From: Alphaproteobacteria bacterium MedPE-SWcel
GTDB lineage: Bacteria; Pseudomonadota; Alphaproteobacteria; Rhodobacterales; Rhodobacteraceae
Assembly: GCA_001874255.1 (NCBI GenBank)
Contig: MPDC01000001.1
Location: forward strand, 62,001 to 126,000
DNA length: 64,000 nt
Direction of reading: 5' to 3'
Part shown: positions 806-52,094 of the stretch, in pieces
Numbering within the stretch: the stretch's first letter is position 1
How the letters are laid out: each line of letters starts with the position of its first letter
Made by a program: the position numbers and the translations under genes
The notes under the pieces: generated by a model
The model's input: the letters and a program-made list of their open reading frames with translations, nothing else
Told to the model about the DNA's origin: nothing
Database searches by the model: none

Positions 806-857
806 GGCCCGGAAGTCAGGCCCGACAGTCAGACCCGGAAGTCAGACCCGGAAGTCA
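806..857 (-). repeat. 13-bp tandem array starting at the stop codon of the FAD oxidoreductase
   Basis: Read on the minus strand there are four contiguous 13-bp units: TGACTTCCGGGTC twice, then TGACTGTCGGGCC and TGACTTCCGGGCC. The TGA of the first unit (857-855) is the stop codon of the oxidoreductase gene. As 13 is 1 modulo 3, the next TGAs lie in the other two frames. The array fills almost all of the convergent gap to the IclR gene, and no U-tailed hairpin is seen there. Confidence 0.9.
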
Positions 858-2177
858 GAACAGGCTTTCGGCTGTCTGCTTGACGAGAAAGGCGGCGCGA
901 TAGGCCTGCGTCTTCACCCCCCGCCCGCGGTCAGGCCTCAGGTCGCTGACCGGGACCGGCAGGCTGTCCTCGGTGGTGCCTGCAAACAGATCAGCCAGGG
1001 CCCGCCCGAACAGGGTGCCCGTGGTGATCCCGCGCCCGTTGTACCCGGTCGGCGCATAGAGCCCGTCTGCCAGGCGATGGATGCGGAACAGGTAGTCCGG
1101 TGTGAAGGCAATCTGCCCGTGCCAGGCATCCTCGAAACTCTGCGGGCCGAGGTCGGGAAACAGGCGCTGCAGCTTGCGTGCGGCCCAGCGGCGCGTCAGC
1201 CCCTCGGTGCCGCCGATCACCGATCCCATCGATCCGATGATCAGCCGCCCGGCCTGATCGCGCCGCAGCGACAGCATGATCTTGCCGGTATCCCAAAGCC
1301 CCTGACCTTCGGGCAGGATCATGCGCCCGGCGTCGCCCAGTGGCGCGGTCGCCAGCTGAAAGAAATTGATCGGTGTGAAGCTCCGCGCTAGGCTAGGCCA
1401 GAGGTCCGCCGTATAGGCATTGGTGGCAATCACCACCCGCTTTGCCGTGAGCACGCCCCGGTCTGTCTCGACGCGCCAGTCCGCGCCGTCGCGGCTCAGC
1501 GCCAGCACCTTTGTCCCGGTCGAGATCTCGGCGCCCGCCGCATGGGCGGCCCGGGCGAGCCCGCGGGCATAGCCCATCGGGTTGATGGTGCCCGCACGCG
1601 CATCCAGCAGACCGCCGTGGAACCGTCGGCTGCCGGTTTTTTCGGCGGTTTCTTCGGCCGTCAGCAGCCGGACCGGGGCGCCCAACGCCTGCCAGGCCTT
1701 CACGCGGCGCTCCAGGTCGCGCAGGCCAGCGGCCGAGTGGGCGGCGTGGATGGTGCCCGCCCGCGTGGCTTCGCAGCGGATCTGATAACGCTCGATGAGG
1801 GAAAAGACATACTCCGGAGCCCGGCCCAGCTCTGCCACCAGGGCCGCCCCCGGCTTTTCGCCCAACCGCTGCTGAACGTCCTGCGGCGGCAGCCAGAGAC
1901 CGGCGTTCACCAGTCCGACGTTGCGCCCGGATCCACCATGGCCGATATCCCTGGCTTCCAGCACATGACAGCGCAGCCCTTTCAGTGCCCCATGCAGGGC
2001 GGTGGACAGACCGGTGTAGCCGCCGCCGACAATGGCGACATCGACCCGACCGTCGATCCCGGAGGCGATTTGGGTCTCGATTTGGGCCTCACTGGGCGTC
2101 TCCGCCGTCAGCGGCCGCCCGACGGTGGCTTCCTCGGAGGAGTGATCCCACAGGGAAATGGGTGTATCTGCGGTCAC
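855..2177 (-). CDS. FAD-dependent oxidoreductase of the DAO family (PuuB-like)
   Basis: Flavoprotein of the D-amino-acid oxidase/glycine oxidase superfamily, most like gamma-glutamylputrescine oxidases. The dinucleotide-binding motif VAIVGGGYTG is at residues about 47-56, followed by the FAD-contact segment GGSGRNVGLVNAG. The C-terminal GYNGRGITTGTLFG is the usual second FAD contact of the family. I place the start at a GTG at 2177 (VTADTPISLWDHS), since the longer frame upstream is Arg/Pro-rich and unlike the family; this gives 440 residues. A putrescine substrate is only an inference from similarity; other secondary amines or amino acids are possible. Confidence 0.82.
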   Translation of the reverse strand: MTADTPISLWDHSSEEATVGRPLTAETPSEAQIETQIASGIDGRVDVAIVGGGYTGLSTALHGALKGLRCHVLEARDIGHGGSGRNVGLVNAGLWLPPQDVQQRLGEKPGAALVAELGRAPEYVFSLIERYQIRCEATRAGTIHAAHSAAGLRDLERRVKAWQALGAPVRLLTAEETAEKTGSRRFHGGLLDARAGTINPMGYARGLARAAHAAGAEISTGTKVLALSRDGADWRVETDRGVLTAKRVVIATNAYTADLWPSLARSFTPINFFQLATAPLGDAGRMILPEGQGLWDTGKIMLSLRRDQAGRLIIGSMGSVIGGTEGLTRRWAARKLQRLFPDLGPQSFEDAWHGQIAFTPDYLFRIHRLADGLYAPTGYNGRGITTGTLFGRALADLFAGTTEDSLPVPVSDLRPDRGRGVKTQAYRAAFLVKQTAESLF

Positions 2178-2383
2178 CTGGCGGGCCTCATTCTCTGGAG
2201 CATATAGCGGGGGGCGGGACCGTCGCACGGAGACGCGCGCCGGGGCCGGTCGCAACATTGAGCCAGGGCCGCCTGCCTGTCAATCGGGCTTGGCGTGCGG
2301 GGGCGACATTGCCTAGGATTGGCCACGGCACACCGCCTCACATCGTACCACGTCGTCGCACACCCAGGAGGAGGAGGAGGCCC

Positions 2384-2902
2384 ATGGCACCGCTCAAGAT
2401 CACATCGGCCCAGATGGTGGCCGAGGCCCGCAGCCGCATAGAGGAGTTGACCTGCGAGACCGCGATTGCCTTGCACCGGTCAGGGTCAGGGTCAGGGTCA
2501 GGGTCAGGGGCAGGGACGGGGACAGGGTCAGGGACGGGGGAGGGAACGGCGGCAGGCTCAGCGGCAGAGGCAGAGGAAAGCGCCGCAGATGTGGTCTTTG
2601 TCGACTTGCGCGATGTGCGGGAACGCCAGCGGGCGGGCTATATCCCCGGCAGTTTCCACTGTCCGCGCGGCATGCTGGAATTCTGGGTGGATCCTGACAG
2701 CCCCTATTTCAAACCGGTTTTCGCCGTCGAGGATACGCAATTCCTGTTCTATTGTGCGTCGGGCTGGCGCTCGGCTCTGTCGGTGGCGGTGCTTCAGGAC
2801 ATGGGGTTCAAGGCGGCGCATCTTCGGGACGGGTTTTCCGGCTGGGCCAAGGCGGGCGGGCCGGTGGAGATGCCAGAGGTCGACCCGGAGCATCAGCCCT
2901 GA
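2384..2902 (+). CDS. Rhodanese-like protein with a Ser-Gly repeat insert
   Basis: Single-domain rhodanese (sulfurtransferase fold), 172 residues. The domain runs from about residue 66 (DVVFVDLRDVRE) to about 165, with the active-site loop CASGWR and the presumed persulfide cysteine at C124. The ATG at 2384 is preceded by a very strong ribosome-binding site made of repeated GGA triplets (2368-2380). Oddity: residues 33-54 are a Ser-Gly/Thr-Gly stretch encoded by a hexamer repeat, placed between the N-terminal helix and the first strand, where relatives have a short loop. Substrate unknown; the gene stands alone. Confidence 0.85.
   Translation: MAPLKITSAQMVAEARSRIEELTCETAIALHRSGSGSGSGSGAGTGTGSGTGEGTAAGSAAEAEESAADVVFVDLRDVRERQRAGYIPGSFHCPRGMLEFWVDPDSPYFKPVFAVEDTQFLFYCASGWRSALSVAVLQDMGFKAAHLRDGFSGWAKAGGPVEMPEVDPEHQP
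2480..2545 (+). repeat. In-frame hexanucleotide repeat in the rhodanese gene
   Basis: TCAGGG is repeated five times from 2480 to 2509 and then decays into GCAGGGACGGGG-type variants. It is in frame and encodes alternating Ser-Gly, then Thr-Gly, so length changes would not break the gene. Confidence 0.9.
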
Positions 2903-3262
2903 GGCAACCAGAGGCCGATGTGGCAAACAGCGATTGCGCAAAAACCGGACGCTGCCCTGGCCTCCCGTGTCGGCGCAGGGGGCGGCGATGCAGAGGGGCG
3001 GTTGCGAAACCGGACCTTTTGAAAAACTCCCGGATCCAATGGCGATGCAAGGAGGCACTATCGGTGAATGGCACGATGAACGCGACCGGCCCTTTGCAAA
3101 ACTATACCTTTGCTCAAATGACTATGCGTAAAATCGGCCTTTATCACGGTATTCAGCCTTTCCTCAGAGGGCTTGTTTCTTTAAGGCTTTCTTAATGTCG
3201 GCGCGAAGCTTCTGCTGTTTCGCGGTCGTGTGGTTGAGGTATTTGGTTATGGGGTGCTGCAG
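2903..3262. other. Gene-free stretch between the rhodanese and Hint-protein genes
   Basis: No convincing coding frame, RNA gene or hairpin terminator seen. The second half (about 3080-3240) is less GC-rich and probably holds the promoter of the Hint-domain gene, but no clear -35/-10 pair stands out. Confidence 0.5.
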
Positions 3263-4324
3263 ATGAAAACGGGCTTTTGTGGCACGTATGTCATCTCCTG
3301 GACGCAAACGGAAATTGATGGTCTCGACGCGGCCCCGCTTGCGGCGGTCGATGTCGGTGCAACCTGGTCCTGGCATGGCGATGCCGTGCGGGTGGACCGT
3401 CCGTCAGAGCTGTTTTGTCCGGACATGGTGAACGGAGAGGGGGACCTGCGACGGCAGGCCGCCCGCGCAGTGCGACGACTGGTCGGCGCAGCGGTCCAGA
3501 ACCGGACGGACATCAACGCGATCAAAGTGGAGGATCCGGCGACCGACAGCAGCTTCGTGGTCACCAATGGCGTCAAAATGTACACGGTCACGCTGATTGA
3601 GATCGGCGACGGTCGGCTTCCGCTGCTGATGTTCGTCGACGACGTGCCGCCACGCAATACCGATCTTTGGGTGGTTCATCACGCCCTGGTGCAAAAGGCA
3701 TCCGCCCAGACTGCGCTGGATCCGGGGGTCATCTGTTTCACGCCGGGGACGCGGATCGCCACTCCTTCGGGGCCGCGGCCGGTGGAGACCCTGCGCGAAG
3801 GCGATCGGGTCCAGACCCGCGACAATGGCGCCCAGCGGGTGCAGTGGATCGGTGCGCGCCGCATGACCGGTGCCCGGCTCTTTGTGATGCCGCAACTGCG
3901 GCCGGTGCGCATTCGCGCCGGTGCGCTGGGGATTGACCGTCCTGAACAGGAGCTTCTGGTCTCGCCTGAACATCGGATGTTGCTCCGGGGCCATGCCGCG
4001 CGTGCCCTGTTCAACGTCCCCGAGGTGCTGGTCGCGGCGCGCGATCTGGTGAATGACGGCACCATCGCCGTCGACCGGACGGTGACAGAGGTGACCTATG
4101 TTCATCTGCTGCTGGAAAATCATCAGGTGATCTGGGCCAATGGCGTCGAAACCGAGAGCTTTCACCCCGCCCATGCGGCGCTTTCGGCGCTCGACGGTTC
4201 CGATCGCAAGCGTCTCTTGCGCCGACTGCCCGGCATCGAAGCGGATCCCGCCAGCTATGGTGCCTTTGCCCGGCGCAATCTGTCCGCCTCCGAGGCTGCT
4301 ATCCTGTTGCAAGAGGCCGCCTGA
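3263..4324 (+). CDS. Hint (hedgehog/intein) domain protein
   Basis: Protein of 353 residues with a Hint domain. The N-terminal part (MKTGFCGTYVISWTQTEIDG) matches the start of a family common in roseobacters, which is why I choose the ATG at 3263 rather than an upstream start. The Hint domain begins near residue 159 (VICFTPGTRIATPSG, with the conserved Cys after which self-cleavage occurs in active members) and continues through PVETLREGDRVQTRD to SPEHRMLL and the late segment NHQVIWANGVETESF. Such proteins are often exported or attached to RTX-type partners, but no RTX repeats or signal peptide are seen here. Role unknown. Confidence 0.85.
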   Translation: MKTGFCGTYVISWTQTEIDGLDAAPLAAVDVGATWSWHGDAVRVDRPSELFCPDMVNGEGDLRRQAARAVRRLVGAAVQNRTDINAIKVEDPATDSSFVVTNGVKMYTVTLIEIGDGRLPLLMFVDDVPPRNTDLWVVHHALVQKASAQTALDPGVICFTPGTRIATPSGPRPVETLREGDRVQTRDNGAQRVQWIGARRMTGARLFVMPQLRPVRIRAGALGIDRPEQELLVSPEHRMLLRGHAARALFNVPEVLVAARDLVNDGTIAVDRTVTEVTYVHLLLENHQVIWANGVETESFHPAHAALSALDGSDRKRLLRRLPGIEADPASYGAFARRNLSASEAAILLQEAA

Positions 4325-4326
4325 CC

Positions 4327-4410
4327 GGCCACATGTGGCCCAAGGCAGGCGGCCACTTGGCCAGTGGCGCAGGCAACCAGTCGCGCAGGCAACCAATGGC
4401 GCGGGCAAAC
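4327..4410. repeat. Palindrome and 16-bp tandem repeat downstream of the Hint-protein gene
   Basis: A perfect 14-bp palindrome, GGCCACATGTGGCC (4327-4340), is followed by three 16-bp units: AGTGGCGCAGGCAACC (4363-4378), AGTCGCGCAGGCAACC (4379-4394) and AATGGCGCGGGCAAAC (4395-4410). The units do not contain the stop codon. They end just before the rpsD promoter. Confidence 0.85.
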
Positions 4411-4432
4411 TGAAAAACAACCGGGTTCCGGC

Positions 4433-4460
4433 TTGACACTGCGTCGGGTTCCTATATACG
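4433..4460 (+). promoter_or_regulatory. Likely sigma-70 promoter of rpsD
   Basis: A perfect -35 TTGACA (4433-4438) is followed after 16 bp by TATACG (4455-4460), overlapping TATATA (4453-4458). Transcription would start near 4467, giving a leader of about 205 nt before the rpsD start. Confidence 0.65.
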
Positions 4461-4466
4461 CCCGGC

Positions 4467-4671
4467 TTCATTGGTGTTGGTGGCCCCCGCAAGGGGAAGC
4501 CTGTCATGGCAGCGGATCCGAAGGGATCCAACCCCAAGAGGACAACGCCCTTCATATGTTGCAGGTTTCCTGGGGCAGGTGAACACTGAGGCTGCGATGA
4601 GACCCGCAGCCGACAGGGTGTGACCTTGGTCAAGGACGCGCTGCAGCGTCACTTTGAGAAGGAGAACAGCC
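4467..4671 (+). ncRNA. Hairpin-rich rpsD leader, possible autoregulatory element
   Basis: The leader holds four well-formed hairpins. CCCC/GGGG with a GCAA tetraloop (4485-4496) is extended by GGC/GCC across a 2-nt bulge. GGATCC/GGATCC with a GAAG loop is at 4514-4529. GGCTGCG/CGCAGCC spans 4590-4611, and GACGC/GCGTC spans 4635-4650. Ribosomal protein S4 is a known autoregulator in other bacteria, so a feedback role is plausible. That role here is inference; only the hairpins are seen. Confidence 0.5.
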
Positions 4672-5292
4672 GTGACCAAACGCACGTCTGCCAAGTACAA
4701 AATTGACCGCCGTATGGGCGAAAACATCTGGGGCCGTCCGAAATCCCCGGTGAACCGTCGTGAATACGGCCCCGGCCAGCACGGTCAGCGCCGCAAGGGC
4801 AAACTGTCCGACTTCGGTATTCAGCTGCGCGCCAAGCAGAAGCTCAAGGGCTACTATGGCGACCTGACCGAAAAGCAATTCCGCCGCATCTACGGTGAAG
4901 CCGAGCGTGTCAAAGGCGACACCGGTGAAAACCTGATCGGTCTGCTGGAAAGCCGTCTGGACGCCGTCGTCTACCGCGCGAAATTCGTGCCGACCGTGTT
5001 TGCGGCCCGTCAGTTCGTGAACCACGGCCACGTTCTGGTGAACGGCCAGCGCGTCAACATCCCCTCCTACCGTGTGAAGGAAGGCGACCTGATCGAAGTG
5101 CGCGACAAGTCCAAGCAGTTGGCTGTTGTCCTCGAAGCGGTTCAGCTGGCCGAGCGTGATGTCCCTGACTACATCGAAACCGACCACAACAAGATGACCG
5201 CGACCTTCGTGCGCGCCCCGTCTCTGGCCGACGTACCTTACCCGGTCATGATGGAACCGAACCTCGTGGTCGAATTCTACGCCAAAAACTAA
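4672..5292 (+). CDS. rpsD: 30S ribosomal protein S4
   Basis: Primary 16S rRNA-binding protein of the small subunit, which nucleates assembly of the 30S body. The 206 residues have the standard length. The S4 RNA-binding domain lies in the second half ([33 protein letters not shown]) and the C-terminal end VEFYAKN is typical. I place the start at the GTG at 4672 ([16 protein letters not shown]), because it follows the ribosome-binding site GAGAAGGAGAA at the right distance and matches the family start. The gene is monocistronic, with its own promoter, long structured leader and terminator. Confidence 0.97.
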
Positions 5293-5332
5293 TCCGCGAC
5301 CTCTGCGGAGGCCTGCCGGATCAAACGATCAC

Positions 5333-5363
5333 AAAAGCCGCTCCTGTTTGGGGCGGCTTTTCC
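5333..5363 (+). terminator. Rho-independent terminator of rpsD
   Basis: AAAAGCCGC (5333-5341) pairs with GCGGCTTTT (5353-5361). The stem ends in a T-run and lies 40 nt after the rpsD stop. Confidence 0.85.
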
Positions 5364-5495
5364 CGTTCCGGGGGCTGCTGTCGGGATCTGGCGCAGGAAT
5401 CTCTTGGGGGCGGAGGGGTTTGCTGAGTATGGTGGCGCTGACACCGGATCCGGCCGTTGAGATGGCCTGAGGTCCGGATACCTCGGGAGAATAGA

Positions 5496-6068: not shown

Positions 6069-6119
6069 GCCGCAGCATGGCGGCAGCGGGCGTGCCATCG
6101 GATCGGCCAAACGGGCGGC

Positions 6120-6581: not shown

Positions 6582-6621
6582 GATGCGATCAATTGATATG
6601 CATTTGTCTGATATGATCAAT
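6554..6621. promoter_or_regulatory. Candidate Lrp operator cluster
   Basis: Three related AT-rich dyads lie in a row: GATCAA-T-TTGATC (6554-6566, inside the start of the regulator gene), ATCAATTGAT (6588-6597) and the arm ATCAAT (6616-6621), which pairs with ATTGAT at 6592-6597. Lrp-type octamers often bind several spaced sites. The first dyad also encodes conserved residues, so it may be chance. Confidence 0.4.
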
Positions 6622-11156: not shown

Positions 11157-11176
11157 CAGTTGCCCAAGGGAGCGGG

Positions 11177-11209
11177 CGCAGGTTCAGGGCAGGATCAGCG
11201 CAGGATCAG
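11177..11209 (-). repeat. 11-bp array across the stop codon of the DUF2125 gene
   Basis: On the minus strand there are three 11-bp units: CTGATCCTGCG (11209-11199, coding), CTGATCCTGCC (11198-11188, containing the stop TGA) and CTGAACCTGCG (11187-11177). The array covers most of the convergent gap to the extensin-like gene. Confidence 0.85.
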
Positions 11210-12208
11210 GCGGGGGGCGGGGCCGAGCGGGATCGGGCCGATGGTGATATAGCCGCCGCGAAACCCCAGCGTGATATCCAGATCCTCCGGGTTTCCACTG
11301 GCGCGCGCCAGCATCGCCACCACGCGGCTCGCCTGATTGCGGGCTCCGGGTGACAGCAGGCCGGTATCCACCGCCAGATCAAGGAACGCGGCCCAGGCTT
11401 CGACCTGCAGCGCCAGCGCTCCGGTGGGGATGCCAGCCTCATCAACATCGAGCTGACCGGTGCTTTTGATCCTCATCTCGCCCCAGCGCAGTTCCATGCG
11501 CTCCAGATCGATCCGGCGCGGCTGTGGTCGGCGGGTTTCCAGCGCCGACCGGCTCCAGGGGGTGTCGAACTCCACATCCGCCGCCAGTGTCAGAACCTCG
11601 AAGGTCTGTGGCAGATCCGGGGCCGAGCGCAGCAATCGCCGCAATTCGGCGCCGGGGCGAAAGTCGCGGGCTTCGGCTGTGATCCGATAGGTTTGCGAGC
11701 TCTGCTGCCGGACCATCCGCAGCGACAGATCCGCCGCCCCAAGGGTGGGCGTCTGCCCGTCTCCGATACTCCAAGCCGCGGCCGTCAGGCCCATGTCTTC
11801 GACCTCCAGCGCAAGGCCGGGCGCCAGCGTCAGCTTTGCCTGCAGCCCCTCGGTGGTGATCACCGCCGTGCGGTCGAAATAGGACAGCCGCTGTTGCCCG
11901 TCGGCAAACCGCAGCACCTGTCGCCCCGGCCAGATCGCGGGGCTTTCGATATCGAGCCAATCCGCACGCCAGGCGGCGCCGGTGGCCGGATCGACCAGCG
12001 CGGGTGCGGTGATCCGGGTGCGGTGGTGCGTCGGAAAGCCACCCAAAGGCGCGGCAGGCGCGATGGAGCGGGTCTCGACCTGCCAGCCTAGCTGCGCCTG
12101 TGCGTCGAACCATGCCGCCACGTTCTGGCGCAATCCCCAGCCCGCAACCACCCAATAAAGCGTCCAGACGAGCGCCGTGCCCACAAGGATTTTCAGCCCG
12201 CGTTTCAT
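11195..12208 (-). CDS. DUF2125 domain protein
   Basis: Protein of 337 residues with one N-terminal membrane anchor (residues about 5-24, ILVGTALVWTLYWVVAGW) and a large periplasmic part that fits the alphaproteobacterial DUF2125 family. The C-terminal GFRGGYITIGPIPLGPAPRLILR is characteristic. The ATG at 12208 puts the anchor right at the N-terminus. It is divergent from the gamma-glutamylcyclotransferase gene with a 68-bp gap. Function unknown; the overall shape resembles AsmA-like lipid-handling proteins, but that is only a fold-level guess. Confidence 0.78.
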   Translation of the reverse strand: MKRGLKILVGTALVWTLYWVVAGWGLRQNVAAWFDAQAQLGWQVETRSIAPAAPLGGFPTHHRTRITAPALVDPATGAAWRADWLDIESPAIWPGRQVLRFADGQQRLSYFDRTAVITTEGLQAKLTLAPGLALEVEDMGLTAAAWSIGDGQTPTLGAADLSLRMVRQQSSQTYRITAEARDFRPGAELRRLLRSAPDLPQTFEVLTLAADVEFDTPWSRSALETRRPQPRRIDLERMELRWGEMRIKSTGQLDVDEAGIPTGALALQVEAWAAFLDLAVDTGLLSPGARNQASRVVAMLARASGNPEDLDITLGFRGGYITIGPIPLGPAPRLILR

Positions 12209-17685: not shown

Positions 17686-18454
17686 ACCCTGTGCGTTCAG
17701 GCCGGATCCGCCTGCAAAATCTTGTCTTTTTTCTCGGCGTAAAACCGACCTGAGTGGACATGAAACTGTCCGGCACCGTCAGGGCGCGCGGAACACTTCG
17801 GTCCGTTTTCGTCGCTCCTCCACAGCCTGTGCCCGTTATCTTGGTGTAGACCTTACATCATTGCAGGTGACACGCAGGGGCAGGGGATAGGCTGACGCCA
17901 TATGTCAAAACGACAGTCTCGCGATTTTCTGTAGGGCCGGGCTGGTTCAAACCTGCCATCGTTGCGCAATTACGGCCGTTGATGTGATCTTCGGCTCATA
18001 CGGGTTGGAGATGTAACCTTCGGCACACTACCGGTCGAATGCGCTGCGGGCTGATTTTCACCGCTTGAACAACCTGTGTTGCAACGGTCGCCCTCGCCAT
18101 TGCCACTTCGGCGTGGGTGGCAGGGATCTGTGGTGCTCCGCGCAACCGTCACCTGTGAACGTTGGGGGCCTGTCGGTTCCCGGCAAAGCGTTCTGTCTGG
18201 GTGTTTAGCGGACAAAAGTGTGTTTGGCGAACAAAAGTATGTTTGGCAGACAAAAGGGACCTGGCCTGCCAACGCATATGAGAGTCGCCCGCCGCCGCAG
18301 AGGAAGGTGGGCGAGCCAAGGCCGTTATGGCTGTACGTCAGGGATGGTTTGGGCGCGCGGGGAACCTTGCCGCCGCCTAATCTGGTGCCCCGCCAGCCTT
18401 TGTCCGGCCCCAGGCAGTCAGGAACTGCAGGCGGCCGGACCTCAGTCGAGGTTG
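17686..18454. other. Gene-free region of 0.77 kb between converging genes
   Basis: No convincing coding frame, tRNA or terminator. Two repeat features are seen: an imperfect direct repeat with a 29-bp offset (GATGTGATCTTCGGC at 17981, GATGTAACCTTCGGC at 18010), and three 19-bp direct repeats at 18202-18258. For a convergent gap it is unusually long compared with others in this window (mostly under 140 bp). Confidence 0.6.
18202..18258. repeat. Three 19-bp iteron-like direct repeats
   Basis: TGTTTAGCGGACAAAAGTG (18202-18220), TGTTTGGCGAACAAAAGTA (18221-18239) and TGTTTGGCAGACAAAAGGG (18240-18258). Each unit holds a partial dyad TGTT-N5-(A/G)ACA followed by AAAGG or AAAGT. Head-to-tail protein-binding sites or simple tandem duplication would both fit. 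Confidence 0.9.
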
Positions 18455-21858: not shown

Positions 21859-22605
21859 ATGCATCTGGATGTGCAGGATCTGAGGAATTTCTATTATCGC
21901 AGCACATTGGGGCGCGCGGCACAGGCTGCGATCCGGGGGCAGCTGCTGCAGATCTGGCCCGATACCACCAATGATACCGTGGCGGGCTTCGGGTTTGCGG
22001 CCCCGCTTTTGCGCCCCTATCTGGACGAGGCCCGCCGGGTGATTGCCCTGATGCCGGGACCGCAGGGGGTGATGCAATGGCCGGCCGGGCAGCCCAATGT
22101 CTCTGTCCTGTGCGAGGAAACCAACTGGCCGATCGAGACGGGGCGCATTGACCGGCTGGTGGTGCTGCACGGACTCGAAACCTCCGAGCGGCCATCGCGT
22201 CTGCTGGATGAATGCTGGCGGGTTCTGGGGCCGGGGGGGCGGGCGATCTTCATCGTGCCCAACCGGGGCGGGCTCTGGGCGCGGTCGGACCGGACCCCGT
22301 TTGGCTATGGGCGGCCCTATACGCTGACCCAGGTGGAAAACCAGCTGAGGGGGCATCAATTCGCGATCGAGCAGCACACGGCCGCGCTCTATCGCTTGCC
22401 CAGCCCGCGCCGGTTCTGGCTCAAATCGGGCGCGATGATGGAGCGCGTCGGACGCCGTCTGCCGGCGATGATGGCGGCGGGCGTGTTTCTGGTGGAGGTG
22501 TCAAAGCAGACCCATCCGCAAAAAGGTCACATGATCACATCCCGGGCGCCGAATCCGATCCGGGTGCTCGAAGGGCTGTCCAATCCCAGCGCCGAACCGG
22601 CCTGA
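21859..22605 (+). CDS. Class I SAM-dependent methyltransferase
   Basis: Protein of 248 residues of the Methyltransf_11 type. The core runs from about residue 35 to 160: [39 protein letters not shown] is the post-motif strand/loop region of the fold. The N-terminus ([26 protein letters not shown]) is the form usually found next to gloB in Rhodobacterales, so the pair is likely functionally linked, but the substrate is unknown. The stop codon starts a 12-bp tandem array. Confidence 0.8.
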
Positions 22606-22664
22606 GTTCGGGCCTGAGTTCTGCCCTGAGCTCGGCCTGAGTTTCGGGCTGAGTCCCGCCCTGA
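22603..22664 (+). repeat. 12-bp tandem array starting at the methyltransferase stop codon
   Basis: Units begin with TGA at 22603 (the stop codon), 22615, 22627, 22638, 22650 and 22662: TGAGTTCGGGCC, TGAGTTCTGCCC, TGAGCTCGGCC, TGAGTTTCGGGC, TGAGTCCCGCCC, then TGATGA. All but one unit is 12 bp; the third is 11 bp and shifts the later TGAs to another frame. Confidence 0.9.
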
Positions 22665-28373: not shown

Positions 28374-28485
28374 TGCCAGGTACGGGTCATGGCAGGCGTG
28401 GGTCATGACAGATGCGGATCATGACCGGCGCAGATCATGCCACCTGCGGATCATGCCTGATGCAGGTCATGCCGGATGCGGGTCA
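28374..28485 (-). repeat. Seven 16-bp units starting at the stop codon of the MarR-GNAT gene
   Basis: On the minus strand seven exact 16-bp units follow one another, the first TGA (28485-28483) being the stop codon: TGACCCGCATCCGGCA, TGACCTGCATCAGGCA, TGATCCGCAGGTGGCA, TGATCTGCGCCGGTCA, TGATCCGCATCTGTCA, TGACCCACGCCTGCCA, TGACCCGTACCTGGCA. TGA and the final CA are kept in all seven while other positions vary. The array fills most of the convergent gap. Confidence 0.95.
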
Positions 28486-29530: not shown

Positions 29531-29591
29531 CCTGTTCCCACCGGTCCCGACCTGCTCCGACCCGTCCCGACCTGTTCCCACCCGATACCGA
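29531..29591 (+). repeat. Three 20-bp repeats in the copA leader
   Basis: Units at 29531-29550, 29551-29570 and 29571-29591 share the form CCTGyTCCsACCsGTCCCGA. They lie between the copper promoter and the copA ATG at 29610, so they are transcribed in the leader. The plus strand is C-rich with few G runs. Confidence 0.85.
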
Positions 29592-40049: not shown

Positions 40050-40444
40050 TTTGAGCCCTTTTTCCGTTGATGCATGTGTCACAAGCGGTTCTAGGCGGGT
40101 CCCGTGCAGGGGGCAAGGGGGCAATGGAGACAAGCGCGCTCTGGTCCGGGGCAAACGCGGGAAAAAAGGCGCTGCCCTGGCGGGCCTCCTCTGAGACGGA
40201 GCGCACGGCGGCGGCTGGTTCTGGCCTGCGACAGAGGACAGGCCTTGAGGGTGGATCCTCCGCAGAATGTCGCCGTGGTCCTGTTGCCGTGGTCCTTTTG
40301 CCGTGGTCCTGTTGCCGCGTGCATGTCGCGGCGATTTGCGGCCACCCGCCGCGATCCCCCTTGGCCTGATCGCCGAAGGCCGGTAGAACGGGTCTCCCGG
40401 CCTCTCGGCGGAGGACGCGATCAAAAAACAAGGAGCAGCCCGAC
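40050..40444. other. Divergent intergenic region between gatB and tex
   Basis: No gene seen. It must contain promoters for both genes. Its middle carries three 14-bp tandem units (40273-40314). Confidence 0.6.
40273..40314. repeat. Three 14-bp tandem units between gatB and tex
   Basis: CCGTGGTCCTGTTG (40273-40286), CCGTGGTCCTTTTG (40287-40300) and CCGTGGTCCTGTTG (40301-40314), followed by a decayed CCGCGTGCATG. Not attached to a stop codon. Confidence 0.9.
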
Positions 40445-43007: not shown

Positions 43008-44432
43008 TCAGCCCGGCGTCACCCGAGGGCCCTCGGGGGTGAAGACCACGCGGTGCCCGGCTTCGATATCGTCCCGAAACAGATCCGCAATCGCCCGCAG
43101 GGCATCGGCGCGGCCCCGTTCGGCGAAGGTGCGTGCAGAGCTGACCTGCGCGTCATTGTCAAACCCCGCGCCCGCATGGGCCCAGATCAACGGATTGAGC
43201 TCGCGCAGGTGGTCGCGGATCAGCCAGTTGGCGGCCTCTGCGATTCGGTTCCGCACGCGGCGGGCCTCGGGATCCGCCTTCGGGTCCGGTTTCAGGACGA
43301 TGCTGCAATAGGCAGACAGCAGGTTGACCCGGTCCTGGTTCGGCGCCCGCGCCACGATATCGCCCACACCCTCGAGGAAAAAATCCACGTCAAGCCTCGC
43401 GCAGGCGGCGTCGCTGCGGGCCAGCGCATCGAAATAGACCCAGGTATACCCGGCCGCCCCCCAGTCGGATTCAACCAAGGCGGCGACGCGGCGCGCTTCG
43501 AGGTCCAGCGCCGACAGGCCCTCATGGTCCTGTTCCGCAAGATGGGTGCCGAGGGCGCGCAGATGCCGAGGATTACCCGGGGCCATCTGGATCAGGTCGA
43601 TGTAGTCATCGGCGATCTGGCGCGGTGCGGCGGGTCCGCCACCGCTGTATAGGGCACAACGCGCCGCCTGATGAAACGGATGGGCGCTGCAGGTATCAGG
43701 GAGCATCGACAGGATTTCACCGGCCCGCGCATGATGGGCCGTCGCGCGCGGGCTGAGCGCGCCCTTGCCATGCGCCGCCCCGCGGGCGCTGTTGCGGCGA
43801 CAGGCCCAGGCAATATCGAGATGGGCGAGGGCGACCACCGTCGACAATACCGGCGAACGACCGAATTCCAGCCGCACCCGCTCCAGCGACATGATGCCCT
43901 CCAGCGTGACCCGCTCGGTCAACGGCAGCCCCGCCATCAGCGCATGATCCACGGCATTGATCACATCGGCCCGCGCGCCATAGGCAATCAGATCGGCAAT
44001 CGAGGTGCCGCCGGGGGTGGCGTCACGCGCGAGATCCACCTCGGCAATGCGCTTCTCCAGAGTATCCCAGCGGTCTTGCCGGGCGAGAAACTGCCCCTCG
44101 GCAATGGCCTGATCGGCCGCTTCGTTTTCGGCGTTGGACTCCGGAACCGGAATGCTCAGCACATCTTCGAGCTGCAAGAGAGACGAGGCGGGCGAGCGGT
44201 CATCTGCAGCCCTGCGGCTGACGGCGGCCGTCAAAGGCAGGGCCAGAGCGGCGGGCAACGTCAGCCCCCCAGTCGATCTGAGCCCGGACGATCTGCGCCC
44301 AGACGATCTGAGTCCAGTCGATCCGGGCCCAGTCGGCCCGAGCCCGGACGATCCGAGCGAAGATACGCGGCTTGAAATCAGGCGCAGTGCTTTTTTCAAA
44401 CCGTCTTTTGCCGGCAGTGCGGAAATTGGCAT
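43008..44432 (-). CDS. Hypothetical protein with an N-terminal pentapeptide repeat
   Basis: Protein of 474 residues that I do not recognise as a named family. Residues 26-55 are six pentapeptides of the type L-x-S-S-G, encoded by six 15-bp units. After a hydrophobic stretch (about 57-70, LTLPAALALPLTAAV) the rest is helical and Ala/Arg-rich, with repeated features suggesting a TPR-like or solenoid fold (NAVDHALMAGLPLTERVTLEG, HPFHQAARCALYSGG, NPRHLRALGTHLAEQDHEGLSALDLEARRVAALVESDWGAAGYTWVYFDALARSDAACARLDVDFFLEG). The start may lie further in. Similar lone proteins occur in Rhodobacterales, function unknown. Confidence 0.65.
   Translation of the reverse strand: MPISALPAKDGLKKALRLISSRVSSLGSSGLGPTGPGSTGLRSSGRRSSGLRSTGGLTLPAALALPLTAAVSRRAADDRSPASSLLQLEDVLSIPVPESNAENEAADQAIAEGQFLARQDRWDTLEKRIAEVDLARDATPGGTSIADLIAYGARADVINAVDHALMAGLPLTERVTLEGIMSLERVRLEFGRSPVLSTVVALAHLDIAWACRRNSARGAAHGKGALSPRATAHHARAGEILSMLPDTCSAHPFHQAARCALYSGGGPAAPRQIADDYIDLIQMAPGNPRHLRALGTHLAEQDHEGLSALDLEARRVAALVESDWGAAGYTWVYFDALARSDAACARLDVDFFLEGVGDIVARAPNQDRVNLLSAYCSIVLKPDPKADPEARRVRNRIAEAANWLIRDHLRELNPLIWAHAGAGFDNDAQVSSARTFAERGRADALRAIADLFRDDIEAGHRVVFTPEGPRVTPG
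44269..44358 (-). repeat. Six in-frame 15-bp repeats in the hypothetical gene
   Basis: On the plus strand: CCAGTCGATCTGAGC, CCGGACGATCTGCGC, CCAGACGATCTGAGT, CCAGTCGATCCGGGC, CCAGTCGGCCCGAGC, CCGGACGATCCGAGC, contiguous from 44269 to 44358. The period is a multiple of three and codes for pentapeptides ending in Ser/Thr-Gly. Confidence 0.95.
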
Positions 44433-47678: not shown

Positions 47679-47801
47679 CGGAGCATCCTTCGAGATATTT
47701 GGGAACCTGCGCGGGGGTGGGCGCGTATACCCTATAGACGTATGAAACCCCGGGCAGGCGGGCAAGCGCCCTTCGCGCCCAAAACTGAAAAGGAGCGGCT
47801 C

Positions 47802-48029
47802 ATGGCTGAATCTGAAACCCCGATGACCTCCCAAAGGGAGGTGCGCCAGCGCAACCGCGGCCTGTATTGGCTGGTGGCGCTGATCCTGCTCGGTGTGGTC
47901 GGCGTGGCGCTGCTTGGCTATACCGATGACCGGGTCGAGGAAGACAGGTCGCTGCTGGACGAGGGGGCGGTTGCACCGCTCATTGATGGCATCGAAGTCG
48001 GGGGCAACGGAGCGGCAGAGGGCAACTGA
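47802..48029 (+). CDS. Small single-pass membrane protein
   Basis: Protein of 75 residues: a charged N-terminus (MAESETPMTSQREVRQRNR), one membrane helix (GLYWLVALILLGVVGVALLGY, residues about 20-40) and an acidic tail (DDRVEEDRSLLDEGA). The ATG follows AAAAGGAG at good distance. Divergent from pepN with a 123-bp gap. No family recognised. Confidence 0.65.
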   Translation: MAESETPMTSQREVRQRNRGLYWLVALILLGVVGVALLGYTDDRVEEDRSLLDEGAVAPLIDGIEVGGNGAAEGN

Positions 48030-48157
48030 TCCTGCATGTCTGCGCTGTCGCCCGGTCTGCTGTGCGGTTCAGGCACATGGCGCCAGATCCGGATCTTGGT
48101 GCTCAAAAAACCGGACAGGACGCCTCCATTGCCTTGCTATTCCTGAAACTCTTCTGT

Positions 48158-48182
48158 CTGGATTGGTAAAATCATTTGACCA
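48158..48182. promoter_or_regulatory. Candidate GntR-type operator upstream of glcB
   Basis: TGGT and ACCA arms (in ATTGGTAAAATCATTTGACCAG) form an inverted repeat around an AT-rich centre. GntR/FadR-subfamily regulators such as GlcC or PdhR bind TGGT-N-ACCA-type sites, though usually with a tighter spacer, so this is only a candidate. Confidence 0.35.
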
Positions 48183-48185
48183 GTC

Positions 48186-48214
48186 TTGTTGCCGATAGGA
48201 AACTTTTGTTATAT
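48186..48214 (+). promoter_or_regulatory. Candidate glcB promoter
   Basis: TTGTTG (48186-48191), 17-bp spacer, TTATAT (48209-48214), 37 bp before the glcB ATG. It sits just downstream of the candidate operator. Confidence 0.45.
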
Positions 48215-48250
48215 CCGGTGGCAAAGCCCACGCTGTTCAGGAGGTGCGCC

Positions 48251-50374
48251 ATGCGCAAGATTGAGGGGATGCAGGTTGCATCCGAATTGGCCGAGTTCAT
48301 CGAGACCAAGGCTTTGCCGGGGACGGGTGTCAGCGCCGACGCTTTCTGGGCCGGCCTGTCTGGCCTGGTGAATGGCATGGGCGACGAAAACCGCGCTCTG
48401 TTGGCCGAGCGCGCGGCGATCCAGAGCAAGATCGACGCCTGGCATCTGGGTCGGCGCGGCCAGCCCCACGATGCGGCCGCCTACAAGAGCTTTCTGGAAG
48501 AGATCGGCTATCTGGTCCCCGAGGGCGCCGATTTCGAGATCGAGACCGCCGGTGTCGACCCGGAGATCGCGCATCTTCCCGGACCGCAGCTGGTGGTTCC
48601 GATTACCAACGCCCGATTTGCCCTGAACGCGGCAAATGCGCGCTGGGGCAGCCTCTATGACGCGCTCTATGGCACCGATGCCATGGGCGATCTGCCGGAG
48701 GGCAAGGGCTATGACGCGGATCGCGGCGCGCGGGTGATCGCCTGGGGGCGCGCCTTCCTGAACGAGACCTTCCCGCTGGCTGAAGGCTCCTGGAACGATC
48801 TCGAGGCGCTCAGCGTCGAAGACGGGCGGCTGACCCCCGCCCTGGCCGATGCCGCACAGTTCGCAGGCTATGTCGGGGATGCGGCCTCTCCCTCTCGGGT
48901 TCTTCTGAAAAACAACGGCTTGCACGTGATACTGGAAGTGGATCGCGCCGGCACGATCGGGGCTTCTGACCCTGCAGGGCTGAACGATATCACGCTGGAA
49001 AGCGCGCTCTCCACCATCATGGACTGCGAAGATTCCGTGGCCTGTGTCGATGCGGCGGACAAGGTCACCGCCTATGCCAACTGGCTGGGTCTGATGAAGC
49101 GCGATCTGGCCGAAGAGGTCACCAAGGGCGGCAAGAGCTTTACCCGCGTGCTCAACGACGACATCTCCTACAGCGCTCCGGATGGCACGGCGGCTGCCCT
49201 CAAGGGGCGCTCGCTGCTGCTGATCCGCAACGTCGGCCACCTGATGACCAACCCGGCCGTGCTCGACAGTGCGGGCCGCGAGGCGGGTGAGGGGCTCCTC
49301 GATGCGATGATCACGGTGATGATCGCGATGCATGACCTGCAGGCGGCGGGCGGCAACTCGCTGCAGGGCTCTGTCTATGTCGTGAAACCAAAGATGCACG
49401 GACCCGAAGAGGTCGCCTTTGCGGTGAAGATCTTCGATCACGTCGAGGACGCGCTGGGCCTGCCGCGCAATACGGTGAAAATCGGCATCATGGACGAGGA
49501 ACGCCGCACCTCGGTGAACCTCAAGGCCTGCATCCGCGCGGCCAGATCCCGGGTGGCCTTCATCAATACCGGCTTCCTCGATCGCACCGGCGACGAGATC
49601 CACACCTCGATGGAAGCGGGGCCGATGCTGCGCAAGGGCGAGATGAAGGGCACGGCCTGGATTGCCTCCTACGAGGATCGCAATGTGGACATCGGTCTGG
49701 CCTGCGGTCTGAAGGGGCGCGCCCAGATCGGCAAGGGGATGTGGGCGATGCCGGACCGCATGGGCGAGATGCTGGAGGCCAAGATCGGCCACCCGAACGC
49801 GGGCGCGACCTGCGCCTGGGTGCCGTCCCCGACTGCCGCCACCCTGCATGCGACCCACTACCACAAGGTCGACGTCCTGGCACGCCAGGACGCGCTCAAG
49901 GCGGGCGGGGCCCGTGGGACGCTGGATGATCTTCTGACCATTCCCGTGATGGACGGGCAGAACCTCTCGGAGGCAGATATCGCCAATGAGATCGAGAACA
50001 ACGCCCAGGGCATCCTTGGCTATGTGGTGCGCTGGGTCGATCAGGGCGTCGGCTGCTCCAAGGTGCCGGACATCAATGATGTCGGCCTGATGGAAGACCG
50101 CGCGACCTGCCGGATTTCCTCGCAGGCGCTGGCCAACTGGCTGCATCACGGCGTCGTCACCGAAGAACAGGTGATGACGGCGATGCGGAAAATGGCCGCT
50201 GTGGTGGATGCACAGAACGCTGCCGATCCGATGTATCGCGCGATGGCGCCGGGATTTGACGGGGTCGCCTTTCAGGCCGCCTGTGACCTTGTGTTCAAGG
50301 GGCGGGTGCAGCCCTCCGGCTATACGGAGCCGGTGCTGCATGCGCGGCGCCTGGAAGCCAAGGCGCGGGGCTGA
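48251..50374 (+). CDS. glcB: Malate synthase G
   Basis: Condenses glyoxylate and acetyl-CoA to malate, 707 residues, the length of the G isoform. Key segments: [27 protein letters not shown], the catalytic/magnesium region [69 protein letters not shown], and [22 protein letters not shown] near the end. The ATG at 48251 follows AGGAGG. Followed by glcG, as in glycolate-utilisation loci, so the enzyme likely serves glyoxylate or glycolate assimilation. Confidence 0.97.
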
Positions 50375-50385
50375 GGCCTCTTTCG

Positions 50386-50406
50386 GGCCGGGGATGACCC
50401 CCGGCC
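50386..50406 (+). terminator. Intercistronic hairpin between glcB and glcG
   Basis: GGCCGGGG (50386-50393) pairs with CCCCGGCC (50399-50406) with a 5-nt loop. Without a real T-run it may only attenuate or stabilise the glcB transcript. Confidence 0.55.
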
Positions 50407-50436
50407 TGTTTCACTCCAGAACAGGGAACTTTCAGC

Positions 50437-50862
50437 ATGACCATCACCCTCGATCAAGCCCGCACCATCATCCAGACCGCCCGCGCCAAGGGGCGGGACA
50501 TGGCACTGAAGCCGCTCTCGGTTGTGGTGCTCGACGCCGGCGGGCATGTGCTGGCCTTCGAACGCGAGGACGGCGCCTCTCCCGGCCGCTTTGGTATCGC
50601 GCAGGGCAAGGCCTACGGTGCGGTGATGTTGGGGATGGCAGGCACCGCGCAGATGGCCCGCGCGGAGCAGCAGGCGTTTTTCATGGCCGCTGTGAACGGC
50701 GTATACGGCGGCCAGGTGGTGCCCGTGCCCGGGGGCGTCCTGGTGCGCGATGCGGCCGGTCAGGTGATCGGCGCCGTTGGTGTCACCGGCGACACGTCGG
50801 ACAATGATGCCGAGGCCGCACGGGTGGGGATCGAGGCTGCAGGCCTGACCGCCGAGATCTGA
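50437..50862 (+). CDS. glcG: GlcG/HbpS family heme-binding-like protein
   Basis: Protein of 141 residues of the GlcG/HbpS family: ITLDQARTIIQTARAKGRDM, LSVVVLDAGGHVLAFEREDGASPGRFGIAQGKAYGAV, VVPVPGGVLVRDAAGQVIGAVGVTGDTSDNDAEAARVGIEAAGL. In E. coli glcG lies in the glc operon with glcB; the biochemical role is unclear, and some family members bind heme. Position right after glcB supports the name. The last codons and the stop are tandemly repeated downstream. Confidence 0.88.
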   Translation: MTITLDQARTIIQTARAKGRDMALKPLSVVVLDAGGHVLAFEREDGASPGRFGIAQGKAYGAVMLGMAGTAQMARAEQQAFFMAAVNGVYGGQVVPVPGGVLVRDAAGQVIGAVGVTGDTSDNDAEAARVGIEAAGLTAEI

Positions 50863-50899
50863 CCGCCGAGATCTGACCGCCGAGATCTGACCGCCGAGG
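50845..50899 (+). repeat. 14-bp array made from the last codons of glcG
   Basis: CTGACCGCCGAGAT occurs at 50845-50858, 50859-50872 and 50873-50886, with a shortened fourth copy at 50887-50899. The first copy encodes the last residues (Leu-Thr-Ala-Glu-Ile) and the stop TGA is formed at the junction to the second copy. TGAs therefore recur every 14 bp, in a new frame each time. Confidence 0.95.
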
Positions 50900-51218
50900 G
50901 CCCCCCGAGGGACCTTTCACGTGGCAGAACCTGCAGGCAATCACGATCAGACAGGGCAGGGGCGCGCGCCGGACCCACATCCGGGCGCGCTTCGTGTCAA
51001 AGGTCAACGACCCGGTTTCGGGCCGGGATCTGGCCGGGATCTGGCCGGTGCAGGTCTGCCAACATGCTCAGGAAAACGGCAGGCCAGCTGCAAAGGACCA
51101 TGTGCGCATGTGAACAAGTGCTTGCGCCACAGCTATGAATTGCGCGCGTGTGGATGATCACCATAATGTGTCTCACCATCCATACCCTGTAGTTCCTGTT
51201 TGACCGGAGACCTCAATC
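50900..51218. other. Gene-free region before the glutamine amidotransferase gene
   Basis: No gene recognised. A short tandem (GGGATCTGGCC twice) lies near 51020-51048. The AT-richer part at about 51120-51200 probably contains the promoter of the downstream gene. Confidence 0.5.
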
Positions 51219-51995
51219 GTGCGCCCCAAAGTTGGCATAATCGGCAATTCCTACTTGATGAACGATCAATACCCGACCCACGCGGGCGGGACGATGAACT
51301 CCGAGGCGGTGTCTCGGGTGTCCGGTTGCCTGCCGCTGCTGATCCCGACCGATCCCCGGTTTGTCACGGTCGAGGAATTGCTGCAGAGCTTTGATGGGTT
51401 TCTGCTGACCGGGGGGCGCCCGAATGTGCACCCGGAGGAATATGGCGAGGACCCGACCGAGGCGCATGGGGAGTTCGACCGCGCCCGCGACGCGATCACC
51501 CTGCCGCTGGTCCGCGCCTGCGTCGAGAGGGGGCAGCCGTTTCTCGGGATCTGTCGCGGCTTTCAGGAAGTGAATGTCGCCATGGGGGGCACGCTCTATC
51601 CGGAAATCCGCGATTTGCCTGGCCGCATGAACCACCGCATGCCGCCCGATGGCTCGATCGAAGAGAAATTTGCCCTGCGCCACCCGGTGAGCCTCGCCAA
51701 GGGGGGGATCTTTCACCAGTTGCTTGGCGCCACCGAGGTGATGACCAATACGCTGCACGGGCAGGGGATCAAGACCGCCGGGGCGCGTATCGAAATCGAG
51801 GGTCACGCGCCGGATGGCACGCCAGAGGCGATCTACGTGCGGGATGCGCCCGGCTTTACCCTCGCGGTGCAGTGGCATCCCGAATATTGCGCCGCCGAAG
51901 ACCCGGTGTCCCGCCCCCTGTTCGAGGCGTTTGGCGCTGCGGCCCGATCCTGGTGCAGCGGAACGCGCCCGGCCTCCCTTCAGCTCTCGGCCTGA
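51219..51995 (+). CDS. Class I glutamine amidotransferase, PuuD-like gamma-glutamyl hydrolase
   Basis: Protein of 258 residues of the peptidase C26 type. The nucleophile loop is FLGICRGFQEVNVAMGG (Cys about 112), and the rest of the triad is in LAVQWHPEYCA. Also seen: FLLTGGRPNVHPEEYG, typical of enzymes that split gamma-glutamyl-GABA or similar compounds. Start is a GTG at 51219 behind CCGGAGA. Putrescine breakdown (PuuD role) is an inference; a PuuB-like oxidoreductase lies at the other end of the window, not in an operon with it. A degenerate tandem array begins at its stop. Confidence 0.82.
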   Translation: MRPKVGIIGNSYLMNDQYPTHAGGTMNSEAVSRVSGCLPLLIPTDPRFVTVEELLQSFDGFLLTGGRPNVHPEEYGEDPTEAHGEFDRARDAITLPLVRACVERGQPFLGICRGFQEVNVAMGGTLYPEIRDLPGRMNHRMPPDGSIEEKFALRHPVSLAKGGIFHQLLGATEVMTNTLHGQGIKTAGARIEIEGHAPDGTPEAIYVRDAPGFTLAVQWHPEYCAAEDPVSRPLFEAFGAAARSWCSGTRPASLQLSA

Positions 51996-52094
51996 AGACC
52001 GGCGGGAGAACCGGCCCCAAAAAATCCGGCCTCAAAAAATTTGGCCTGAAAACCGACCTGAAAACCGGCCCCCAAAGAATCCGACATGAATTCC
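51989..52094 (+). repeat. Degenerate tandem array starting at the amidotransferase stop codon
   Basis: About eight units of 12-16 bp begin with GGCC or GACC-like blocks followed by an A-run: GGCCTGAAGACC (containing the stop TGA), GGCGGGAGAACC, GGCCCCAAAAAATCC, GGCCTCAAAAAATTT, GGCCTGAAAACC, GACCTGAAAACC, GGCCCCCAAAGAATCC, GACATGAATTCC. TGA recurs at 52047, 52059 and 52087. Confidence 0.8.

What the first reader, a model, noticed from the sequence alone, without database searches (positions are those of the whole stretch)
806..52094. Stop codons embedded in short tandem arrays at six unrelated genes
At six genes the stop codon is part of a tandem array that continues downstream: FAD oxidoreductase (13 bp x4, 806-857), DUF2125 (11 bp x3, 11177-11209), methyltransferase (about 12 bp x5, 22603-22664), MarR-GNAT (16 bp x7, 28374-28485), glcG (14 bp x4, 50845-50899) and the glutamine amidotransferase (12-16 bp, 51989-52094). 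The arrays do not share a sequence; each seems grown from its own gene end, and most units carry TGA. Four of the six fill convergent gaps where no U-tailed terminator is seen. Possible meanings: neutral slippage, a fail-safe stop in all frames, or a Rho-loading (rut-like) C-rich tract. I know no described system of this kind.
Basis: partly seen in the sequence, partly recalled or inferred. Interest (0 to 1): 0.85.

Follow-up and report, generated by a model that had tools for sequence, protein, structure and literature searches.

The report
Genome-wide short repeat arrays between genes
The repeats at stop codons are real, but they are the edge cases of many small copy-paste repeats scattered between genes in this bacterium and its nearest sampled relative, so they do not look like a special stop signal.

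Summary
The arrays exist: five of six stops lie inside TRF arrays; the amidotransferase array starts 16 bp after its stop. The link to stop codons is weak. In 1.13 Mb of this genome short arrays (mostly 11-16 bp units) cover 6-7% of bases 10-75 bp after stops, 4-6% at 100-300 bp, 3.3% at the stop codon, under 1% at starts: no peak at the stop. An up to two-fold excess near 3' ends remains, clearer in the sister; constraint or uncalled genes could cause it. TGA is not kept better than other positions in downstream units (110/121 vs 740/854), and arrays have no sense-strand C excess. The oddity is lineage-specific: 86 noncoding arrays per 100 kb noncoding DNA here and 67 in the sister (Phaeobacter sp. 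B1627), against 19 pooled over ten genus mates. In seven shared gaps the two species carry different arrays. Best reading: fast birth and loss of short tandem duplications by slippage, tolerated where harmless, including across a stop. Why this pair is rich is unexplained; Ku is absent from all 18 genus genomes searched, and RecJ, ExoVII and the PolA exonuclease domain were found in 17 or 18.

The parts
808..859 (-). 13 bp x4 array over the stop (855-857) of the FAD oxidoreductase; convergent gap
   Evidence: TRF; ORF; Pfam DAO; sister has a different 14/18 bp array here
11178..11210 (-). 11 bp x3 array over the stop (11195-11197) of a DUF2125 protein; convergent gap
   Evidence: TRF; unit found at the coding end of 5 of 7 relatives scored; sister has an 11 bp array with another consensus
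22597..22664 (+). about 12 bp x5.8 array over the stop (22603-22605) of a methyltransferase
   Evidence: TRF; sister has a diverged, loosely repeated stretch at the same place (by eye) inside a gap aligned at 0.89 identity
28372..28497 (-). 16 bp x7.9 array over the stop (28483-28485) of a MarR-GNAT protein; convergent gap
   Evidence: TRF; sister gene end shows no such array
50845..50898 (+). perfect 14 bp x3.9 array over the stop (50860-50862) of a glcG-like gene
   Evidence: TRF; seed CTGA...CTGA spaced by 14 at the coding end, similar in relatives without the array
52011..52067 (+). 15/12 bp degenerate array starting 16 bp after the stop (51993-51995) of a glutamine amidotransferase; convergent gap
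   Evidence: TRF; ORF
2483..2539 (.). 18 bp x3.2 array not at a stop (divergent gap)
   Evidence: TRF; context; no array in the sister gap
4361..4408 (.). 16 bp x3 array, intergenic, 36 bp after a stop
   Evidence: TRF
18201..18256 (.). 19 bp x2.9 array, intergenic, 198 bp from the nearest stop
   Evidence: TRF
29531..29584 (.). 20 bp x2.7 array in a divergent gap; the sister expanded a neighbouring 15 bp unit that appears once here
   Evidence: TRF; alignment
40268..40317 (.). 14 bp x3.6 array in a divergent gap
   Evidence: TRF
44268..44358 (.). 15 bp x6.1 array, intergenic, 90 bp upstream of a gene
   Evidence: TRF
51021..51048 (.). 11 bp x2.5 perfect array, intergenic, 158 bp from a stop
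   Evidence: TRF
56562..56591 (.). 14 bp x2.1 perfect array, intergenic, 201 bp from a stop
   Evidence: TRF

Best explanation
In the two-species lineage of this genome and its nearest sampled relative (Phaeobacter sp. B1627), short tandem duplications of about 11-18 bp arise often, probably by slippage between chance short direct repeats, and then grow, decay and are replaced. Selection removes them in coding DNA (except multiples of three) and close to gene starts, and tolerates them elsewhere. A duplication that spans a stop codon is harmless because the first copy keeps the gene's own end intact, so gene ends are simply the borders of the tolerated zone; the copies downstream carry the stop triplet along without a job. 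Shown: distribution over 1.13 Mb, frame rule, different arrays in the same gaps of the two species, seed copies at two gene ends, no special conservation of TGA. Inferred: slippage as the copying step, and neutrality. Not explained: why this lineage is rich in them.
For: Coverage in this genome rises from 0.3% at 15-50 bp inside genes through 3.3% at the stop to 6.3-6.6% at 10-75 bp after it, with no peak at the stop, and is 0.6-0.8% around starts rising to 5.4% at 200-300 bp upstream (578 stops, 618 starts with gaps >=60 bp). Stop codons fully inside arrays: 24 of 992 (2.4%), against 3.8% of all noncoding bases; in the sister 9 of 324 (2.8%) against 2.6%. Coding arrays are multiples of three in 44 of 50, noncoding in 51 of 130. 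Stop-phase bases among downstream units identical 110/121, other phases 740/854, Fisher p=0.24. In 69 syntenic gaps >=40 bp, arrays in both species 7, own only 7, sister only 4, none 51; the consensus units differ in all 7 shared gaps. In the best aligned gaps (identity 0.80 and 0.89) the array is a local island of difference. Seeds at coding ends of relatives for glcG and DUF2125. Density: G000 130 in 152 kb noncoding, sister 32 in 48 kb, ten mates 20 in 107 kb (p=1e-13 and 6e-6).
Against: Some 3'-end preference is left after setting aside start-proximal DNA: 7.5% (CI 5.5-9.6) within 100 bp of a stop vs 3.6% (2.3-5.1) further away, both >=200 bp from starts, both genomes pooled; in gaps without a 60-aa ORF 9.7% vs 1.9%, the latter on 2.2 kb only. 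In the sister coverage falls from 5-6% at 10-150 bp after stops to 1.5% (CI 0-3.8) at 200-300 bp, and stays at 0-2.2% upstream of starts out to 300 bp. Arrays recur in the same gaps in both species more than independence predicts (p=0.0007; gap length and type not controlled). Non-stop units are enriched for CAG/CTG (92 of 125 vs 63.9 expected). Coding arrays are only mildly more frequent here (5.1 vs 3.2 per 100 kb coding), less than a pure mutator might give.
Confidence: 0.7

Rival explanations
1. Stop arrays are a fail-safe: repeated TGA triplets in several frames catch ribosomes that read through or slip.
For: In this genome in-frame backup stops within 60 nt are commoner after array-bearing stops (18 of 29 vs 169 of 550, p=0.0008). 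Against the stop-bearing unit, the stop triplet is kept in 51 of 60 other units vs 577 of 833 for other triplets.
Against: The second figure is in the direction expected when one of the two compared copies is fixed by selection; among downstream units only, the difference is not significant (110/121 vs 740/854). The sister shows no backup-stop excess (3 of 8 vs 60 of 171). Arrays are also common where no stop is near.
Confidence: 0.05
2. The arrays are Rho-loading (rut-like) tracts or other terminators that end transcription, above all in convergent gaps.
For: 30 of 99 convergent gaps >=60 bp hold an array vs 12 of 119 divergent in this genome (p=0.0002). Convergent gaps with an array show a U-tailed hairpin less often (6 of 40 vs 31 of 95, p=0.04, both genomes pooled). 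The 11-16 bp period would suit evenly spaced YC dimers (recalled, not from a call).
Against: No C>G excess on the sense strand. In co-directional gaps the terminator relation goes the other way (12 of 72 vs 42 of 410, p=0.15). The array at C6:96360-96487 lies between the stop and a U-tailed hairpin also seen in the sister, by eye. Convergent gaps hold no gene starts, which alone raises their share. Gap length was not controlled in the terminator test, and rut sites were not scored with a predictor.
Confidence: 0.08
3. Array birth is directed to 3' ends, for example by transcription-replication conflict or supercoiling between convergent genes, so the location is a mutational bias and not only tolerance.
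For: Two-fold excess within 100 bp of stops among bases far from starts, the order convergent > co-directional > far > start-proximal in this genome, and the fall-off with distance from stops in the sister.
Against: Far intergenic DNA may contain uncalled genes and other elements, which would lower its array density; the convergent vs co-directional difference near stops (9.0 vs 6.0%) is within the intervals, and in the sister far co-directional DNA (6.1%) is no poorer than near-stop co-directional DNA (3.6%). CTG/CAG orientation shows no contig-wide strand bias.
Confidence: 0.2

Closest known systems
Tandem repeats of Borg elements (PLoS Biol 2023, PMC9879509; passages and the first part of the discussion seen)
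   Same: Many unrelated arrays scattered over a genome, different unit at each site, fast turnover between close relatives, ORF units in multiples of three, arrays that begin within gene ends; virtually absent in the host genomes.
   Different: Borg units are perfect and A-rich and sit on an archaeal extrachromosomal element; here most arrays have degenerate copies, array G+C (63% in arrays within 150 nt of stops) is like that of the surrounding DNA, and the arrays lie on contigs of a bacterial genome.
Bacterial intergenic VNTR / minisatellite loci
   Same: Head-to-tail arrays of 10-35 bp, mostly intergenic, slippage as the usual explanation.
   Different: Usually reported as tens of typing loci (recalled); here 130 noncoding arrays in the sampled 1.13 Mb. 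Strain-level copy-number change could not be tested.
Small tandem duplications made at DNA breaks (Pol alpha-primase; PMC8355091, search listing with the start of the abstract only)
   Same: Short direct duplications.
   Different: Described with reference to the human genome; the bacterial Ku protein that could join such ends is absent in all 18 genomes of the genus searched.

Membership tests
Intergenic tandem repeat (minisatellite/VNTR-like) loci | Head-to-tail copies beyond chance | tested here: met
   83 real vs 0,0,0,2,0 in shuffles
Intergenic tandem repeat (minisatellite/VNTR-like) loci | Copy number varies between strains | not testable with these tools
   One genome per species held; between sister species the consensus units themselves differ
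Borg-type tandem repeats | Units perfectly repeated | tested here: not met
   24 of 130 noncoding arrays at 100% match in G000, 2 of 32 in G009
Borg-type tandem repeats | A-rich units | tested here: not met
   A is 17.9% of array bases within 150 nt after stops, sense strand, G000
Borg-type tandem repeats | ORF repeats in multiples of three | tested here: met
   44 of 50 coding arrays in G000, 9 of 12 in G009
Rho utilisation sites | C richer than G on the transcribed sense strand | tested here: not met
   Skew +0.016, CI -0.06 to 0.085, vs +0.019 in gaps without arrays
Rho utilisation sites | Rho-dependent 3' ends at the site | not testable with these tools
   Needs term-seq
Fail-safe tandem stop codons | Extra stop triplets kept by selection | tested here: not met
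   110/121 vs 740/854 identical among downstream units, p=0.24

The most novel reading that the evidence does not exclude
A two-species roseobacter lineage has acquired a process that makes 11-16 bp tandem duplications at a raised rate, with a preference for CAG/CTG-bearing sites and gene 3' ends, so that gene ends and intergenic DNA are rewritten within the divergence of sister species: a bacterial chromosome counterpart of the Borg repeat burst, from a cause not yet identified.
Probability: 0.3. Interest if true: 0.6.

Novelty: new member of a known kind. Interest (0 to 1): 0.35.

Why it matters
It sets aside a proposed stop-codon system and replaces it with a measurable genome property: two sister species have several times more short intergenic arrays than the genus mates sampled. 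That makes the cause of short-duplication births in bacteria testable by comparing close relatives, and it warns that repeats at gene ends need an intergenic background count before a function is proposed.

Tried and rejected
Stop-specific function, fail-safe stops and rut tracts were tested and not supported. A primase-site model (CTG start sites, period like primer length; recalled ideas) was considered because CAG/CTG is enriched in units; it predicts a strand bias along contigs, and none is seen (G000 C1: 17 arrays with more CTG, 18 with more CAG, 20 with equal counts). Missing repair genes: Ku not found in 18 of 18; PolA 5'-3' exonuclease domain and ExoVII found in 17 of 18, the exception being the 67%-complete G008; RecJ in 18 of 18. 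Presence does not exclude point changes. No other repair gene was searched. Young (>=97% match, n=25) vs old (<85%, n=39) arrays: within 100 bp of a start 8 and 12, over or within 30 bp of a stop 5 and 15, not clearly different. Literature: phrase 'stop codon tandem repeat' 0 papers; six-term Rho query 0 papers; in the titles and abstract starts listed (15 of 500 listed; 15 of 111 listed) I saw nothing on tandem arrays over bacterial stop codons; only the archaeal Borg paper came near. The library lacks most subscription journals.

Rows dropped: one search left out paralogous loci (L130-L133, L146-L153, L191-L204) and counts some arrays twice because glcG and amidotransferase loci overlap, so densities are taken. 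Genus mates sampled besides the sister G009: 10 of 16 (not G008, G013-G017). The seed test scored 8 of 10 glcG relatives, 7 of 12 DUF2125, 7 of 17 methyltransferase, 6 of 11 FAD and 6 of 17 amidotransferase relatives, and no MarR-GNAT relative. The stop-conservation tests left out arrays with indels (3 listed as skipped) and stops only partly inside an array. Pooled runs used period 8-35 unless said, which drops the MarR-GNAT array; one search used 8-60. One search printed 14 gap pairs, identity 0.25 to 0.89, so several align poorly. Gene calls are from my own hexamer caller; on 100 kb of E. coli K-12 (trained on that 100 kb) it found 76 of 88 annotated stops with 1 extra call, and 54 of those 76 starts exactly.
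Full report
Observation. TRF on the window and ORFs confirm the six arrays. In five the stop codon lies inside the array (FAD oxidoreductase, DUF2125, methyltransferase, MarR-GNAT, glcG-like); in the sixth (glutamine amidotransferase) the TRF core starts 16 bp after the stop. Pfam agrees with the gene names. The arrays are not chance: in 408 gaps (114 kb with margins) of a 752 kb sample there are 83 arrays of period 8-35 and score >=50, against 0, 0, 0, 2, 0 in five dinucleotide shuffles.

Genome-wide count. I read 1.13 Mb of the 4.08 Mb genome (and the window, which is C1:62001-126000), called 997 genes with a hexamer model, and ran TRF: 50 coding arrays, 98 intergenic, 27 touching a stop, 5 over a start. 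The profile around 578 stops with gaps of at least 60 bp is: -50 to -15 bp 0.3%; -15 to -3 1.7%; stop codon 3.3% (CI 1.9-4.7); 0-10 4.5%; 10-25 6.3%; 25-75 6.5-6.6%; 75-150 5.7-5.8%; 150-200 5.1%; 200-300 4.3%. Around 618 starts it is 0.6-0.8% up to 25 bp upstream, rising to 5.4% at 200-300 bp. In the sister G009 (179 stops, 198 starts) the rise at the stop is alike (3.7% at the stop codon, 5.3-6.3% at 10-100 bp), but coverage falls to 3.9% at 150-200 and 1.5% (CI 0-3.8) at 200-300 bp, and upstream of starts it stays at 0.5-2.2%. Stop codons fully inside arrays are 24 of 992 (2.4%) in G000 and 9 of 324 (2.8%) in G009, against 3.8% and 2.6% of all noncoding bases. So the stop is on the flank of a plateau, not on a peak.

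What is left of a 3'-end preference. In G000 convergent gaps of at least 60 bp hold arrays more often (30 of 99) than co-directional (60 of 376) or divergent (12 of 119) gaps; in G009 10 of 36, 12 of 106 and 2 of 44. Part of this follows from avoidance of starts, but among bases at least 200 bp from any start, those within 100 bp of a stop are covered at 7.5% (CI 5.5-9.6) and those further at 3.6% (2.3-5.1) (both genomes). Far intergenic DNA may contain uncalled genes, so I treat this as an upper estimate, untested: restricting to gaps without a 60-aa ORF leaves only 2.2 kb of far DNA (1.9% vs 9.7%). Random placement of each of 163 arrays within its own gap gives 23.5 or 28.6 stop-covering arrays for an allowed reach into the gene of 15 or 20 bp, against 33 observed; with 5 or 10 bp it gives 9.9 or 18.0, and with 30 bp 36.2.

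TGA. With the stop-bearing unit as reference, stop bases match in 178 of 189 comparisons and other bases in 659 of 756. One side of that comparison is held by selection, which by itself would lower the mismatches. Using only the units downstream of the working stop, stop-phase bases are identical in 110 of 121 and others in 740 of 854 (p=0.24). In arrays away from stops TGA is kept in 138 of 194 comparisons against a mean of 67% for all triplets; in stop arrays 108 of 126 against 74%. Array stops are TGA in 32 of 37; all stops are TGA in 931 of 1316 (both genomes).

Rho and terminators. Sense-strand composition of arrays within 150 nt of stops in G000 is C 32.2%, G 31.2% (88 segments), as in gaps without arrays (C 31.7%, G 30.5%, 484 segments). 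In convergent gaps with an array a U-tailed hairpin is found in 6 of 40, without in 31 of 95 (p=0.04, gap length not controlled); in co-directional gaps 12 of 72 against 42 of 410 (p=0.15). At C6:96360-96487 the array lies between the stop and a U-tailed hairpin that the sister shares, by eye.

Lineage. The same GTDB genus has 18 held genomes including this one. G009 is the closest (78-99% amino-acid identity over the six genes) and has the contig length and gene position of Phaeobacter sp. B1627; G006 and G011 have contig lengths of Tritonibacter scottomollicae and Epibacterium sp. Ofav1-8. Noncoding arrays per 100 kb of noncoding DNA: G000 85.7 (130), G009 67.3 (32), ten mates 0-41, pooled 18.6 (20 in 107 kb). 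Coding densities are 5.1, 3.6 and 3.2 per 100 kb coding. Arrays with a period not divisible by three and at least 2.8 copies, per 100 kb of total sequence: G000 4.16, G009 2.08, ten mates 0.52, 79 homologous loci from other genomes (676 kb) 0.15, E. coli K-12 (100 kb) 0.

Turnover. Between the sampled parts of G000 and G009, 101 gaps are syntenic and 69 are at least 40 bp long: arrays in both 7, own only 7, sister only 4, none 51, more sharing of gaps than independence gives (p=0.0007; length and type of gap not controlled). In all 7 shared gaps the consensus units differ, though at DUF2125 both arrays seem by eye to start from the same coding end. Of the 14 gap pairs printed some align well (0.80, 0.89) with the array as a local island, others poorly (down to 0.25). 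In the divergent gap at C1:91419 the sister expanded a 15 bp unit that appears once here, while this genome expanded the neighbouring 20 bp. For glcG the unit is present in the conserved last codons of 7 of 8 relatives scored, between two CTGA copies 14 bp apart in this genome; for DUF2125 in 5 of 7; for the methyltransferase only weakly; for the FAD oxidoreductase and amidotransferase the seed could not be shown.

Mechanism. Periods cluster at 11-16 bp (mode 14 in G000). The upper bound is probably real, since longer units pass the TRF score more easily; the lower bound is partly set by the score. Non-stop units are enriched for CAG/CTG (92 of 125 vs 63.9 expected) and ACTGG (16 vs 2.7), with no strand bias along contigs. 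Slippage between short direct repeats is the simplest copying step and fits the glcG seed; it is inferred. Ku-dependent end joining is unlikely, and loss of the PolA exonuclease domain, ExoVII or RecJ is excluded by presence in G000 and G009, though not subtler change. Whether the lineage makes more duplications or keeps more of them is open; coding arrays are only mildly raised.

Known relatives. The nearest description I found is the repeat burst of Borg elements (PMC9879509; passages and first part of the discussion read), whose authors also note repeats whose first unit lies within or partly within gene ends. The bacterial case here differs in mostly imperfect units without A enrichment. 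I saw no paper on tandem arrays over bacterial stop codons in the listings, in a library that lacks most subscription journals.

Verdict. The sequence observation is right for five of six; the inferred link to stop codons is mostly an edge effect of abundant intergenic arrays, with a modest 3'-end preference unresolved. The abundance itself, high in my sample only in two sister species, is the part worth following.

Noticed in passing
C6:96360-96487 of G000 (outside the window), aligned to G009: A 16 bp array sits between a stop codon and a U-tailed hairpin that is also seen in the sister, a clean case of an array beside a terminator-like hairpin.
   Followed up: partly
L062 and L046 (records titled Kiloniellales MAGs): Four and two arrays respectively in 9.3 kb, so other alphaproteobacterial lineages may be array-rich too.
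   Followed up: no
array units of G000 and G009: CAG/CTG and especially CCAGT/ACTGG are over-represented in array units compared with non-array intergenic DNA; cause unknown.
   Followed up: partly
window 52094-52150: Downstream of the amidotransferase array a G+C-rich inverted repeat without a T-run lies in the convergent gap, seen by eye.
   Followed up: no
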